Shown piece after piece: positions 21,045 through 25,314 of a stretch of 64,000 bases of DNA. The position numbers and the translations under genes were made by a program. Location of the stretch: positions 186,001 through 250,000 of the forward strand of contig JBBDYQ010000022.1 of the NCBI GenBank assembly GCA_040901445.1, read 5' to 3'. Numbering within the stretch: the first letter of the stretch is position 1; every line of letters begins with the position of its first letter. The notes under the pieces were generated by a model. It was not told the DNA's origin. It was given only the letters and a program-made list of their open reading frames with translations, and made no database searches. The DNA comes from Thermoleophilaceae bacterium. Lineage in GTDB: Bacteria; Actinomycetota; Thermoleophilia; Solirubrobacterales; Thermoleophilaceae.

Positions 21045-21413
21045 TCAGTAGGTGAACGTCATCGCCTCGTCGCCGGCGAACTCCATCAGCGGCGAGGCGC
21101 CTTTGAGCTCGGCGTTCTGGACCAGTTCGTCCTCGTCCAGGTCACGCTCGTTGAAGCAGATCGGGCACACGTAGAAGCGCCCGCCCTTCTCGATGAACTG
21201 CTCGTGCACGCGCGCGACCGGCGGCTCCATGCCCTCGCGGATCGGGTCCGCGTAGCCGTCCATGGCGAGGCGCACGCCGTCCGACGTGAGCCACATCACC
21301 ACGTCCTTGCCCTGGTCCAGCGCGGCGCCGGCGGTGAGGTAGGCCACCACCACGCGGTCGGGGTCCTCCTCGCCGTGCGAGCAGCCGACGATCACGCGTC
21401 CGTTACCTGCCAT
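21045..21413 (-). CDS. DsrE/DsrF-like family protein
   Basis: A 122-residue DsrE-fold protein. The start VIVGCSHGEEDPDRVVVAYL, then ALDQGKDVVMWLTSDGVRLA and KGGRFYVCPICF, are the pattern of the DsrE-like proteins annotated as sulfur-reduction or predicted peroxiredoxin proteins. Conserved cysteines (in GCSHG and CPIC) could carry persulfide or another chalcogen. I chose ATG 21413 because it shares its A with the stop of the upstream methyltransferase (TGATG); GTG 21416 is possible. Tight coupling to the UGA-containing methyltransferase suggests the two act together on sulfur, selenium or arsenic compounds. Confidence 0.85.
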   Translation of the reverse strand: MAGNGRVIVGCSHGEEDPDRVVVAYLTAGAALDQGKDVVMWLTSDGVRLAMDGYADPIREGMEPPVARVHEQFIEKGGRFYVCPICFNERDLDEDELVQNAELKGASPLMEFAGDEAMTFTY

Positions 21414-22210
21414 CACTCATCCCCCCTTGGTTTCGTGGCGCGGATGGTCGACCCCATCGCGCCGAACTTGGCGGCCTTGCGCCGCGTGTCCTCGAACGCC
21501 GAGCGGGCGTAGGTGTCCACGAGCTCGCCCTGCTCGATCTCCGTGTAGCCCATCCCCACGAGGATGCGCGCGTGCTCTCCTTCCAGGAGAGCCCCGGCGA
21601 TTCACCCGGTCCAGAGGTCGATGCGCTTGCGTGCGTCCTCGGAGACCTCGGTGTGGACCACGACGTCGGCCACCTGCAGCCGGCCACCGGGGCGCAGCAC
21701 GCGGTCGATCTCGGCGAAGACCGCCTCCTTGTCGGGCACGAGGTCGATGACGCCGTTGGAAAGGACGACGTCCACGGACCCGTCCTCCAAGGGCAGCGAC
21801 TCGATCAGCGACTCGTGCACCTCGACGTTGGTCAGCCCCATCTCGCGCGCGCTCTCCCGCGCCCGGTCGAGCATGGCCGGGGTCATGTCGATCCCGGTCA
21901 CGTGCCCGCCCGGGCCGGCCATCTGAGCGGCCACCAGCAGGTCGGTGCCGGCGCCGCAGCCGAGGTCGAGCACCCGCCGGTCCGCCTCCACGCGCCCGAG
22001 GGAGAAGGGGTTGGCCACGCCCGCGAAGCTCTCCACGGTCGCGTCGGGCACGCGCGAGAGCTCGGGCTGGGGATAGTCCAGGTCCTCAGCCCACGCGCGG
22101 CCGGTGGGGAAGAGAAAGTCCTGGCCCTGTTCGCTGGAGACGTCGGTGTAGGTCTGCCGGATCTCGCGCCGGAGGACGTCGACGTCCACGGGGAGGTTCA
22201 CGGTGCTCAC
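21413..22210 (-). CDS. ArsM-like SAM-dependent methyltransferase with in-frame UGA (probable selenocysteine)
   Basis: A Rossmann methyltransferase of the arsenite-methyltransferase-like group. Residues 1-202 contain motif I VLDLGCGAGTD (80-90), GIDMTPAMLDRAR, EDGSVDVVLSNGVIDLVPDK and FAEIDRVLRPGGRLQVADVV, then reach RKRIDLWTG followed by UGA (21604-21602). In frame, 62 more codons follow (IAGALLEGEHARILVGMGYT, then EIEQGELVDTYARSAF, ending TKPRGDE) before a stop at 21413-21415. In this family the residue before IAGAL is a conserved, metalloid-binding cysteine, so UGA replaces exactly that residue. Read through, the protein is 265 residues long, the family length, and its stop overlaps the DsrE start; read as a stop, 188 bases of conserved coding sequence are unexplained. 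Sequencing error and pseudogene remain alternatives. Confidence 0.75.
21574..21592 (-). promoter_or_regulatory. bacterial SECIS-like hairpin just downstream of the UGA
   Basis: On the sense (minus) strand, GCTCTCC, loop TGGAA, GGAGAGC forms a perfect 7-bp stem. The stem starts nine bases after the UGA and the loop begins 16 bases after it, with G as the second loop base. Bacterial SECIS elements that recruit SelB are short stem-loops at this distance with a G among the first loop bases. Agreement in stem, loop and spacing supports selenocysteine decoding. Confidence 0.65.
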
Positions 22211-22270: not shown

Positions 22271-23218
22271 CTAAGCCGGCATGTCCACGACGCACGCGGG
22301 CACCGTGGCGTCGCAGCAGTCGGTGAGCGTGGTGATGAAGGCGCGCTCGGACGGCGTCAGGTGGCGGTCGTGTGCGCGCAGCAGCTGGATTGGCCGTGAG
22401 GGGGTGGCCCCGCCCGCGATGCGGAAGGAGCTCAGGCGCCCCTGCTCGAGCTCGTCCTCCACCACCAGCCGGGAGACGAAGCCCACGCCGAGCCCGGCCG
22501 CCACCGCCCGCTTGATCGCCTCGTTGGAGTCGAGCTCCCACGTCTTGGCCGGGCGCACCCCGGCGGCGCTCAGGTGCCTGTCCGCTGTCGCGCGCGTGGA
22601 GGAGCCGCGCTCACGGACCAGCAGCGTGTGCCCGGCGAGCTCCTCTGCGCGGACGTCCTCTGCGGCGAAGGTGCCCGGCGCCACGATGCCCACGAGCTCG
22701 TCGTCGAGGAACGGCTCGACGGCCACGGTCGGGACGGCCTGGATCTCGCCCGCGATCCCCAGCTGAACCTCGCGCGTGGCGACCTGGCGCATGACCTCGG
22801 CGCTGGGGCCGATCGACATCGTCACGTCCACGCCCGGGTGGCGCTCGGCGAAGCACTTCAGCACCGAGGGGAGCACGTAGGTGCCCGGCGTGGTGGACGC
22901 CGCGAGCGTGAGCACGCCCGTTTCGCCCCCGCGCAGCGCCCGCAGCTCGTCCTCCATCGCCGCCAGTGAGCCGAGCATCTGCGAGGCGTGGTCGGCCACG
23001 ACGCGGCCGGCGTCGGTGAGGGTCGAGCCGCGGCCTTCGCGCCGCAGGAGCGGCTCACCGACCGCGCCCTCGAGGGTCTTGAGGTGCTTCGTGGCCGACG
23101 GCTGCCCGATGCGGCACGCGTCGGCCGCCGCGGAGATCGAGCCGCGACGCTCCACCTCCACGAGCAGCCGCAGGCGCAGCGGGTCCAGCGCCTGGGCCAT
23201 GCCGTTCTGGAAGTTCAC
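22271..23218 (-). CDS. LysR-family transcriptional regulator with Cys-rich C terminus
   Basis: A 315-residue regulator (GTG 23218; ATG 23200, MAQALDPLRL, is a likely alternative). The winged-helix HTH is LRLLVEVERRGSISAAADAC, then QPSATKHLKTLEGAVGEPLL. The effector domain follows with GVLTLAASTTPGTYVLPSVL and WELDSNEAIKRAVAAGLGVG, resembling the CysB/CysL-type subgroup. The tail, TLTDCCDATVPACVVDMPA, contains CC-x6-C, unusual for LysR proteins; it could bind a thiophilic metal, metalloid or persulfide (inference). It is divergent from the metallo-hydrolase/MFS pair and probably in one operon with the methyltransferase and DsrE genes, so it likely controls both sides. Confidence 0.88.
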   Translation of the reverse strand: MNFQNGMAQALDPLRLRLLVEVERRGSISAAADACRIGQPSATKHLKTLEGAVGEPLLRREGRGSTLTDAGRVVADHASQMLGSLAAMEDELRALRGGETGVLTLAASTTPGTYVLPSVLKCFAERHPGVDVTMSIGPSAEVMRQVATREVQLGIAGEIQAVPTVAVEPFLDDELVGIVAPGTFAAEDVRAEELAGHTLLVRERGSSTRATADRHLSAAGVRPAKTWELDSNEAIKRAVAAGLGVGFVSRLVVEDELEQGRLSSFRIAGGATPSRPIQLLRAHDRHLTPSERAFITTLTDCCDATVPACVVDMPA

Positions 23219-23272: not shown

Positions 23273-24034
23273 ATGTACTTCCGCCAGCTCCTCAACGACG
23301 ACACGGCGTGCGCCTCCTACCTCCTCGGCTGCAAGTCGCGTTCGAGCTTCGCGGTCGTGGACCCGCACATCGCCCTCGTCGACGACTACCTGCGCCTCGC
23401 CGAGGGGCAGGGAGCGTCGATCACCGCCGTCCTCGAGACCCACGTCCAGGCCGATCACGTGTCCGGCCTACCCGACCTCGTGGCCCGCACGGGGGCCACG
23501 GCCTACCTGCCCGAGGGAGCCGACGTGGCCTTCGACCACGTGGCGCTCGCGCACGGTGGAGAGGTCGAGCTCGGCAACGTCTCGGTGGGCGCCCTGGCCA
23601 CGCCCGGCCATGCCGCGGCGCACAACGCGTACACCGTCACCGACCACACCCGGGCCGAGGAGCCGTGGCTCGTGCTCACGGGTGACGCGCTGCTGGTGGG
23701 CGACGCCGGGCGCCCCGACCTCCACGCGTACGGCGAGCTGTCTCCCGAGGAGATGGCACGCCGGCTGCACCGCTCCATCCGCGATCGCATCCTCTCGCTG
23801 CCCGATCACGTGGCTCTCTACCCCGCGCACTACTCCGGCTCGGTGTGCGGCCGCGGGCTCTCCGCGGTGCCCGCGTCCACGGTCGGCTTCGAGCGCGCGC
23901 ACAACCCGGCGCTGCGCTTCGACGGCGAGGACGAGTTCGCGGCAGCGCTGGTGCGGGACATGCCGCCCGCGCCCGGCGGGCAGGCGGAGATCGTCGCGGC
24001 CAATCGCGCCGGGCGACCGCGTTCTCCCGCCTGA
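23273..24034 (+). CDS. MBL-fold metallo-hydrolase, persulfide dioxygenase (ETHE1)-like, with H-x-Q-x-D-H motif
   Basis: A 253-residue metallo-beta-lactamase-fold protein. The order of motifs follows glyoxalase II/ETHE1 persulfide dioxygenases: AVLETHVQADHVSGLPDLVA, PGHAAAHNAYTV, LVLTGDALLVGDAGRPDL and ALYPAHYSGSVCG. ETHE1-type enzymes oxidise glutathione or coenzyme-A-type persulfide to sulfite with a mononuclear iron (His, His, Asp). Here the canonical HxHxDH is HVQADH: Gln replaces the second His, which could change metal binding or activity. The neighbouring DsrE protein and UGA methyltransferase fit a sulfur or selenium substrate. No rhodanese domain is fused. Confidence 0.8.
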   Translation: MYFRQLLNDDTACASYLLGCKSRSSFAVVDPHIALVDDYLRLAEGQGASITAVLETHVQADHVSGLPDLVARTGATAYLPEGADVAFDHVALAHGGEVELGNVSVGALATPGHAAAHNAYTVTDHTRAEEPWLVLTGDALLVGDAGRPDLHAYGELSPEEMARRLHRSIRDRILSLPDHVALYPAHYSGSVCGRGLSAVPASTVGFERAHNPALRFDGEDEFAAALVRDMPPAPGGQAEIVAANRAGRPRSPA

Positions 24035-25314
24035 TGCCCGCCCGGCAGGTCGAGCTCGGCCTGCGGGAGAACCTGCCGCAGTTCTCGCTCCTCGTCGGAC
24101 TCAACGCCTTCGTCGGCGCGATGGTGGGCCTGGAGCGCTCCACGTTGCCGCTTCTGGGGGAGGAGGACTTCGGCCTGGTCTCCAAGGCGGCCGTGCTCTC
24201 GTTCATCGTCGCCTTCGGCGCCGCGAAGGCGCTCACGAACCTCGGCGCGGGGGCGCTGGCGCAGCGGCTCGGGCGGCGGCGCCTGCTGATCGCGGGCTGG
24301 GCGCTGGCGCTTCCGGTGCCGCTGCTGGTGGGCATCGCGCCGTCGTGGGGGTGGATCGTGGCAGCCAACGTGCTGCTCGGGGTCAACCAGGGCCTCGCGT
24401 GGTCCATGACCGTGGTGATGAAGATCGACCTGGTCGGACCGCGGCGACGCGGGTTCGCGCTCGGGCTGAACGAAGCCGCGGGCTACGGCGGCGTGGCGCT
24501 CGCCGCCGCGGCCACGGGTCTGCTCGCGGCGGAGTTCGCGGCGCGCGACGTGCTCGTGGTCGCCGGCGCGGGGATCGCGGTCATCGCGCTACTGCTCTCG
24601 GTGCTGTTCGTTCGCGACACCGCCGGGCACGTCGCCCTCGAGCAGGCGCGCCACCACGCCGCCGATGACCGCCCCGAGCCCCGCCTCCGGGAGGCATTCC
24701 GCGACACGAGCTGGCGGCTGCCGGCTCTGAGGTCGTGCTCGCAGGCCGGGCTGGTGAACAACCTCAACGACGCTCTCGCCTGGGGGCTCGTGCCGCTGTT
24801 CCTCGCCGCCGAGGGGGCGAGCGTGGGACAGATCGGGCTGGTGGCCGCGGTCTACCCGGCGGTGTGGGGGCTCGGGCAGGTCTGGGCCGGGCACTGGTCG
24901 GACCGCGTGGGGCGCAAGCCGCTGATCGTGGCCGGCATGTTCACGCAGGCCGCGGCGCTCGCCGTGCTCGCCGTCTCGGGTGGGGACGTGGCGGTGGCCG
25001 CGGTCTCCGCCATCCTGCTCGGGGTCGGCACCGCGCTCGTGTACCCGACCCTCATCGCGGCGATCTCCGACGCGGTCGCGCCGGTCGCGCGGGCGCCCGT
25101 GGTCGGCGTCTACCGCTTCTGGCGCGATTCGGGCTATGTGGCGGGCGGCCTGGTGGCCGGGGTGGTGGCCGATGCGCTCGGGTTCGGCGGGGCGATCGCG
25201 GTGGTCGCCGGGCTCACCGCGGCCTCGGGAGTGTGGGTCGCGCTGGACCTCCCGGGTAGGCTGCGCCCGCACCCCGACCGGAGGCGGACGAGATGGCGAA
25301 GGACGGTAGCCTGA
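24034..25314 (+). CDS. MFS transporter
   Basis: A 426-residue, 12-helix major facilitator. ATG 24034 overlaps the metallo-hydrolase stop by one base (TGATG), so the two are co-translated. Features include LGAGALAQRLGRRRLLIAGW (motif A variant), GVNQGLAWSMTVVMKIDLVG with PRRRGFALGLNEAAGYGGVA, and in the second half GHWSDRVGRKPLIVAGM and LGVGTALVYPTLIAAISDAV. The sequence resembles sugar/drug antiporters; the substrate is unknown. Context suggests export or uptake of a sulfur-, selenium- or arsenic-containing compound handled by the cluster. The 3' end overlaps the start of the next gene by 22 bases. Confidence 0.85.
   Translation: MPARQVELGLRENLPQFSLLVGLNAFVGAMVGLERSTLPLLGEEDFGLVSKAAVLSFIVAFGAAKALTNLGAGALAQRLGRRRLLIAGWALALPVPLLVGIAPSWGWIVAANVLLGVNQGLAWSMTVVMKIDLVGPRRRGFALGLNEAAGYGGVALAAAATGLLAAEFAARDVLVVAGAGIAVIALLLSVLFVRDTAGHVALEQARHHAADDRPEPRLREAFRDTSWRLPALRSCSQAGLVNNLNDALAWGLVPLFLAAEGASVGQIGLVAAVYPAVWGLGQVWAGHWSDRVGRKPLIVAGMFTQAAALAVLAVSGGDVAVAAVSAILLGVGTALVYPTLIAAISDAVAPVARAPVVGVYRFWRDSGYVAGGLVAGVVADALGFGGAIAVVAGLTAASGVWVALDLPGRLRPHPDRRRTRWRRTVA

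What the first reader, a model, noticed from the sequence alone, without database searches (positions are those of the whole stretch)
21574..21592. SECIS-like stem-loop at the correct distance after the UGA
GCTCTCC / GGAGAGC with loop TGGAA is a perfect stem that starts nine bases after the UGA. Its loop begins 16 bases after the UGA and has G at its second position, as expected for bacterial SECIS elements bound by SelB. The codons here must also encode the conserved GAL-EGEH segment, so the stem is an extra constraint.
Basis: partly seen in the sequence, partly recalled or inferred. Interest (0 to 1): 0.75.

Follow-up and report, generated by a model that had tools for sequence, protein, structure and literature searches.

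The report
Selenocysteine hairpin in ArsM-like methyltransferase
A short RNA hairpin just after an in-frame UGA makes the ribosome insert selenocysteine into an arsenite-methyltransferase-like enzyme; relatives that carry the UGA keep the hairpin through compensating mutations, and relatives with ordinary cysteine lack it, so this is a sound new example of a known kind of signal.

Summary
On the minus strand, UGA (21604-21602) is codon 203 of an ArsM-like SAM methyltransferase (22210-21413). It is followed after nine bases by GCTCTCC-TGGAA-GGAGAGC (21592-21574), and the loop begins after 16 bases. It meets every published constraint of the bacterial SECIS model. Alone, the hairpin is weak evidence: 23 such hairpins occur in the window. 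Comparison settles it. In 74 UGA-bearing homologues the 7-bp helix forms in 97% of cells, and three pairs change on both sides (CTCTCC/GGAGAG, CTCTGC/GCAGAG, CGCTGC/GCAGCG, GCCTGC/GCAGGC). In 29 cysteine homologues no more than one loop-closing pair survives. The genome has SelA, SelB, SelD and tRNA-Sec, and a second UGA gene (formate dehydrogenase) with the same hairpin plan. The Sec aligns with As-binding Cys224 of CmArsM, but Cys72 and Cys174 are replaced by Val and Gly in this clade, so it should not be called a canonical arsenite methyltransferase. Its substrate is open; its neighbours (DsrE, MBL-fold hydrolase, rhodanese, MFS, LysR) suggest sulfur or selenium chemistry. SECIS: near certain, a new member of a known kind. 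The lone-Sec ArsM-like clade is the more interesting part.

The parts
21602..21604 (-). In-frame UGA, read as selenocysteine (codon 203)
   Evidence: UGA in all 75 homologues of the Sec set, TGC in 29 Cys homologues at the same aligned position; 54-65 residues follow it in all but a contig-end row
21574..21592 (-). Bacterial SECIS hairpin: GCTCTCC-TGGAA-GGAGAGC
   Evidence: Covarying 7-bp helix in Sec homologues, absent in Cys homologues
21413..22210 (-). ArsM-like SAM methyltransferase, Sec203; GTG start (start choice inferred), ends in a TGA stop
   Evidence: Pfam Methyltransf_31 2.7e-34; NCBIfam ArsM models 200-215 bits; model pLDDT 94.6, best structural match ArsM 4fr0 Z 25.9
21045..21413 (-). 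DsrE-family gene; its ATG overlaps the methyltransferase stop (TGATG), probably same operon
   Evidence: PF02635 8.8e-11; a homologue lies by the methyltransferase in 17 of 33 clade-A loci
22271..23218 (-). LysR regulator upstream; best NCBIfam match selenium metabolism-associated LysR, below cut-off
   Evidence: homologue in 9 of 33 clade-A loci
23273..24034 (+). MBL-fold hydrolase in the conserved neighbourhood (end approximate)
   Evidence: PF00753; homologue in 12 of 33 clade-A loci
23845..25314 (+). MFS transporter in the conserved neighbourhood (ORF start as listed; true start probably later)
   Evidence: PF07690; homologue in 15 of 33 clade-A loci

Best explanation
The hairpin is a bacterial SECIS element. 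In the mRNA it folds just 3' of UGA codon 203. SelB carrying Sec-tRNA-Sec binds the apical loop (UGGAA, with G at position 2 and a U-A closing pair) and delivers selenocysteine at the UGA instead of termination, giving a 265-residue ArsM-like methyltransferase with Sec at the position of arsenic-binding Cys224 of CmArsM. Shown: UGA, hairpin, covariation, absence with Cys, machinery in the genome. Inferred: SelB binding, insertion, and a catalytic or ligand role of the Sec.
For: Geometry fits the bSECIS model quoted in PMC13188914: 7-bp stem, 5-nt loop, G in the first two loop positions, N1-G-G-N-N2 pattern, spacing 16, hairpin MFE -11.9. Covariation in 74 Sec homologues: 97.0% of cells paired against 79.9% in shuffles and 31-47% when slid; covariation score 0.444 against 0.146 shuffled; three pairs with double changes. 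Synonymous third positions follow changes at their partner: Leu CTC with Gly GGA, Leu CTG with Ala GCA; Ala GCT with Glu GAG, Ala GCG with Ala GCG. Rare codons are favoured: GCT in 22 of 33 and GAA in 20 of 30, against 8% and 6% in window genes. Cys homologues: no consensus structure, at most one pair from the loop. Own genome: tRNA-Sec by ARAGORN and Rfam, SelB, SelA next to SelB, SelD. A second UGA in formate dehydrogenase (ENQARI-U-HSS) is followed by GGTCCCG-AGTCT-CGGGACC.
Against: No experiment. The single-sequence statistics are weak. Few independent substitutions: about 4-5 changes for most variable positions on the tree, so the shuffle counts overstate significance. L079 (78% identity) has lost the register and only its shifted hairpin remains. 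12 of 41 distant UGA homologues have a broken or shorter helix under my strict 6-bp rule.
Confidence: 0.96

Rival explanations
1. The hairpin is a chance product of GC-rich coding sequence and of the amino acids encoded; UGA is a true stop that truncates the enzyme at residue 202.
For: 23 similar hairpins in the window; MFE unremarkable against codon-preserving resamples.
Against: The codons after UGA stay open for 54-65 residues in 74 of the 75 Sec rows (the other ends with its contig) from several phyla; covariation; no such hairpin in Cys homologues; full Sec machinery.
Confidence: 0.02
2. The hairpin is an intrinsic terminator or another mRNA element unrelated to Sec.
For: It is a GC-rich inverted repeat.
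Against: No T-run, no terminator-like site in the region, no Rfam family match, lies inside a conserved coding region, and is present only where the codon is UGA.
Confidence: 0.01
3. UGA is read as Trp or another residue by a suppressor tRNA or an altered code, and the stem is incidental.
For: None beyond the open frame.
Against: Homologues have only UGA or Cys at this place; the same gene ends in TGA; SelA, SelB, SelD and tRNA-Sec are present.
Confidence: 0.01

Closest known systems
Bacterial SECIS (bSECIS) elements, model described in PMC13188914
   Same: Position, spacing, stem and loop size, G at loop position 2, N1-G-[G/U]-N-N2 loop
   Different: Spacing is at the lower limit (16); sequence unlike the E. 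coli fdh elements, as is usual
Sec-containing arsenite methyltransferase (PRK11873/NF008823, UxxG), PMC2398784 and PMC13188914
   Same: UxxG motif (UIAG), ArsM fold, Sec at the Cys224 position
   Different: Only 203 bits against a cut-off of 263; Cys72 and Cys174 replaced by Val and Gly
NCBIfam ArsM fusion selenoproteins (NF041536 DUF2284, NF041537 AhpD) and NF047649 UXPK-star
   Same: Nearest sequence models (206-215 bits)
   Different: Those have a second domain and two or more Sec; this protein is a single domain with one Sec and lies far below their cut-offs

Membership tests
bacterial SECIS element | In-frame Sec-UGA upstream in a coding region | tested here: met
   UGA at 21604-21602 with conserved coding on both sides
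bacterial SECIS element | Spacing UGA to apical loop 16-37 nt | tested here: met
   16 nt
bacterial SECIS element | 3-9 nt loop on a 4-16 bp stem, MFE <= -7.5 | tested here: met
   5 nt, 7 bp, -11.9 kcal/mol
bacterial SECIS element | G in the first two loop positions | tested here: met
   TGGAA
bacterial SECIS element | Structure maintained by covariation among Sec genes and absent in Cys genes | tested here: met
bacterial SECIS element | Host has SelA, SelB, SelD, tRNA-Sec | tested here: met
bacterial SECIS element | Binds SelB and directs Sec insertion | not testable with these tools
   needs experiment
arsenite methyltransferase ArsM | ArsM fold and SAM-binding domain | tested here: met
   Z 25.9 to 4fr0, about 5 above the best non-ArsM row; Methyltransf_31
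arsenite methyltransferase ArsM | Conserved As(III)-binding Cys72, Cys174, Cys224 (PMC5552862) | tested here: not met
   V65 and G153 at the first two, Sec203 at the third
arsenite methyltransferase ArsM | Curated cut-off of NF008823 (263 bits) | tested here: not met
   203.4 bits
arsenite methyltransferase ArsM | Methylates As(III) | not testable with these tools
   needs assay
ArsM fusion selenoproteins NF041536/NF041537/NF047649 | Curated cut-offs and second domain | tested here: not met
   215, 214 and 206 bits against 575, 510 and 460

The most novel reading that the evidence does not exclude
The Val/Gly (FAGVANP, SNGVI) clade is a distinct selenoenzyme family, not an arsenite methyltransferase: a lone selenolate at the old Cys224 site works on a reduced sulfur, selenium or persulfide substrate, in step with its DsrE, rhodanese and MBL-fold neighbours.
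Probability: 0.35. Interest if true: 0.6.

Novelty: new member of a known kind. Interest (0 to 1): 0.42.

Why it matters
It shows, with a Cys control and compensating substitutions, that the UGA is decoded as Sec in uncultured-rich Thermoleophilia relatives, where reading the UGA as a stop would cut this gene at residue 202. It also exposes a broad selenoprotein clade (Actinomycetota, Chloroflexota, Pseudomonadota, Myxococcota) that looks like ArsM but lacks two of its three arsenic ligands, a testable question about substrate.

Tried and rejected
The first alignment included an unreversed locus, L026, and was discarded. Rfam has no match, which is uninformative here. Terminator reading rejected. 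Tree-based sign tests had too few independent pairs for significance. A selD link: none of the genome-contig loci examined has selD nearby; one G019 copy of the methyltransferase lies about 2-3 kb from selD, not general. The paper that defines the ArsM fusion selenoproteins (Haft and Tolstoy 2025, reference 64 of PMC13188914) is not held, so those families could not be compared residue by residue.

Full report
What is there. The window belongs to a 3.54-Mb, 25-contig genome (G000). Its nearest relatives by the methyltransferase are Solirubrobacterales/Thermoleophilaceae MAGs of the Actinomycetota; the exact taxon is inferred. On the minus strand, GTG 22210 opens a frame that meets UGA at codon 203 (21604-21602) and goes on to a TGA stop at 21415-21413. 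Nine bases after the first UGA lies GCTCTCC-TGGAA-GGAGAGC (21592-21574).

How unusual is it alone? Modestly. Perfect 7-5-7 hairpins occur 23 times in the window. With the protein and codon usage held fixed, 594 of 200,000 resamples make a 7-bp Watson-Crick stem in this register. The folding energy of the region is not exceptional against that null. The position was predicted beforehand by the UGA, which helps, but the case rests on homologues.

Homologues. One scan of 84,980 species genomes plus 81 genomes (the window's own and 80 relatives) gave 75 distinct loci with UGA at this position, the window included, and 29 with TGC. All 33 usable close homologues (61-80% identity, and the window; called clade A here) have UGA. 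Distant ones from the genome scan (44-50%) are mostly UGA with four TGC; the other 25 TGC rows come from the relatives, and 21 of them are canonical ArsM with Cys at the Cys72 and Cys174 positions. In the tree the UGA rows need two changes of state. Four Cys rows sit inside the UGA clade with strong support, and these four have no hairpin.

The helix. In 74 UGA sequences (67 distinct) the seven pairs form in 97.0% of cells; slid partners give 31-47%. Pairs 14/30, 15/29 and 18/26 change on both sides. In coding terms: when residue +8 is Gly (GGA) the Leu codon +5 is CTC, and when it is Ala (GCA) the Leu codon is CTG; when residue +9 is Glu (GAG) the Ala codon +4 is GCT, and when it is Ala (GCG) it is GCG. 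These are synonymous third positions following a change in their pairing partner (L079 is the exception). Distant Sec homologues commonly use another helix, GCCTGC/GCAGGC with loop CGTGC or CGTGT, in the same register. Clade-A codons against usage: GCT at +4 in 22 of 33 and GAA at +7 in 20 of 30, where window genes use GCT 8% and GAA 6%. GAA gives the U-A pair N1-N2 of the published loop pattern. In 29 Cys homologues RNAalifold finds no pairs, and none has more than one pair from the loop. Caveat: sequences are related; parsimony finds only about 4-5 changes at most variable positions.

Exceptions. L079 breaks the register but has TGCTCC-ACGG-GGAGCA a few bases further on. L080 has loop TCGAG. 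Under a strict rule of 6 or more pairs, 32 of 33 clade-A and 29 of 41 distant Sec sequences pass; 5 of 29 Cys pass in any register and 2 near this one.

Machinery. tRNA-Sec with anticodon TCA (Rfam 68.7 bits; ARAGORN), SelB 306.6 bits, SelA 473.9 bits adjacent to SelB, SelD 379.8 bits. Four relatives with the gene were checked and have SelA, SelB and SelD over the cut-offs; three of them have a clear tRNA-Sec at 66 bits or more, while G021's best is 52 bits. Two relatives without it, G003 and G035, lack SelA and have no SelB or SelD over cut-off. A formate dehydrogenase alpha gene in G000 contains ENQARI-U-HSSTVPSLGTSFGRG; the UGA is followed by GGTCCCG-AGTCT-CGGGACC with the loop 18 nt away. 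That it matches the E. coli FdnG Sec site is from my own knowledge.

The protein. Sec203 aligns with CmArsM Cys224 (4fr0/5eg5 numbering), V65 with Cys72 and G153 with Cys174 (assignment by counting along the alignment). All 75 Sec rows have Val at the first; all but one (Ser) have Gly at the second. The fold is ArsM's (Z 25.9; best non-ArsM 20.9). ArsM is defined by those three Cys (PMC5552862), so this is ArsM-like, not shown to be an arsenite methyltransferase. Neighbours in clade A: DsrE 17 of 33, MFS (some rhodanese-fused) 15, MBL-fold 12, LysR 9, ArsR-rhodanese 7; contig ends make these lower bounds. This resembles sulfur or persulfide handling, or selenium handling, more than a classical ars operon; that is an inference.

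Known or new. Sec-ArsM and bSECIS are both established (PMC2398784, PMC9312934, PMC13188914). The SECIS here is a new, well-supported member. The lone-Sec Val/Gly clade matches no NCBIfam model at cut-off; I could not check all literature.

Noticed in passing
G000:C10 about 4490 (L173), outside the window: Second probable selenoprotein gene, a formate dehydrogenase alpha subunit with UGA at ENQARI-U-HSS and its own 7-bp SECIS-like hairpin.
   Followed up: partly
window 21045-21413: DsrE-family gene whose ATG overlaps the methyltransferase stop (TGATG); frequent partner of the gene in relatives, with a CPICF motif.
   Followed up: partly
window 22271-23218: LysR regulator closest to the NCBIfam model of selenium metabolism-associated LysR (201.6 bits, cut-off 250).
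   Followed up: partly
L079:3736-3774: UGA orthologue in which the hairpin has moved a few bases downstream while the old register is lost; a possible case of SECIS turnover.
   Followed up: partly
L149, L122, L145, L151: Cys-containing members nested inside the Sec clade that have neither UGA nor hairpin.
   Followed up: yes
G019:C178 and G019:C78: Two UGA-bearing copies of the methyltransferase in one MAG, one about 2-3 kb from selD; could be a true paralogue or strain mixture.
   Followed up: no
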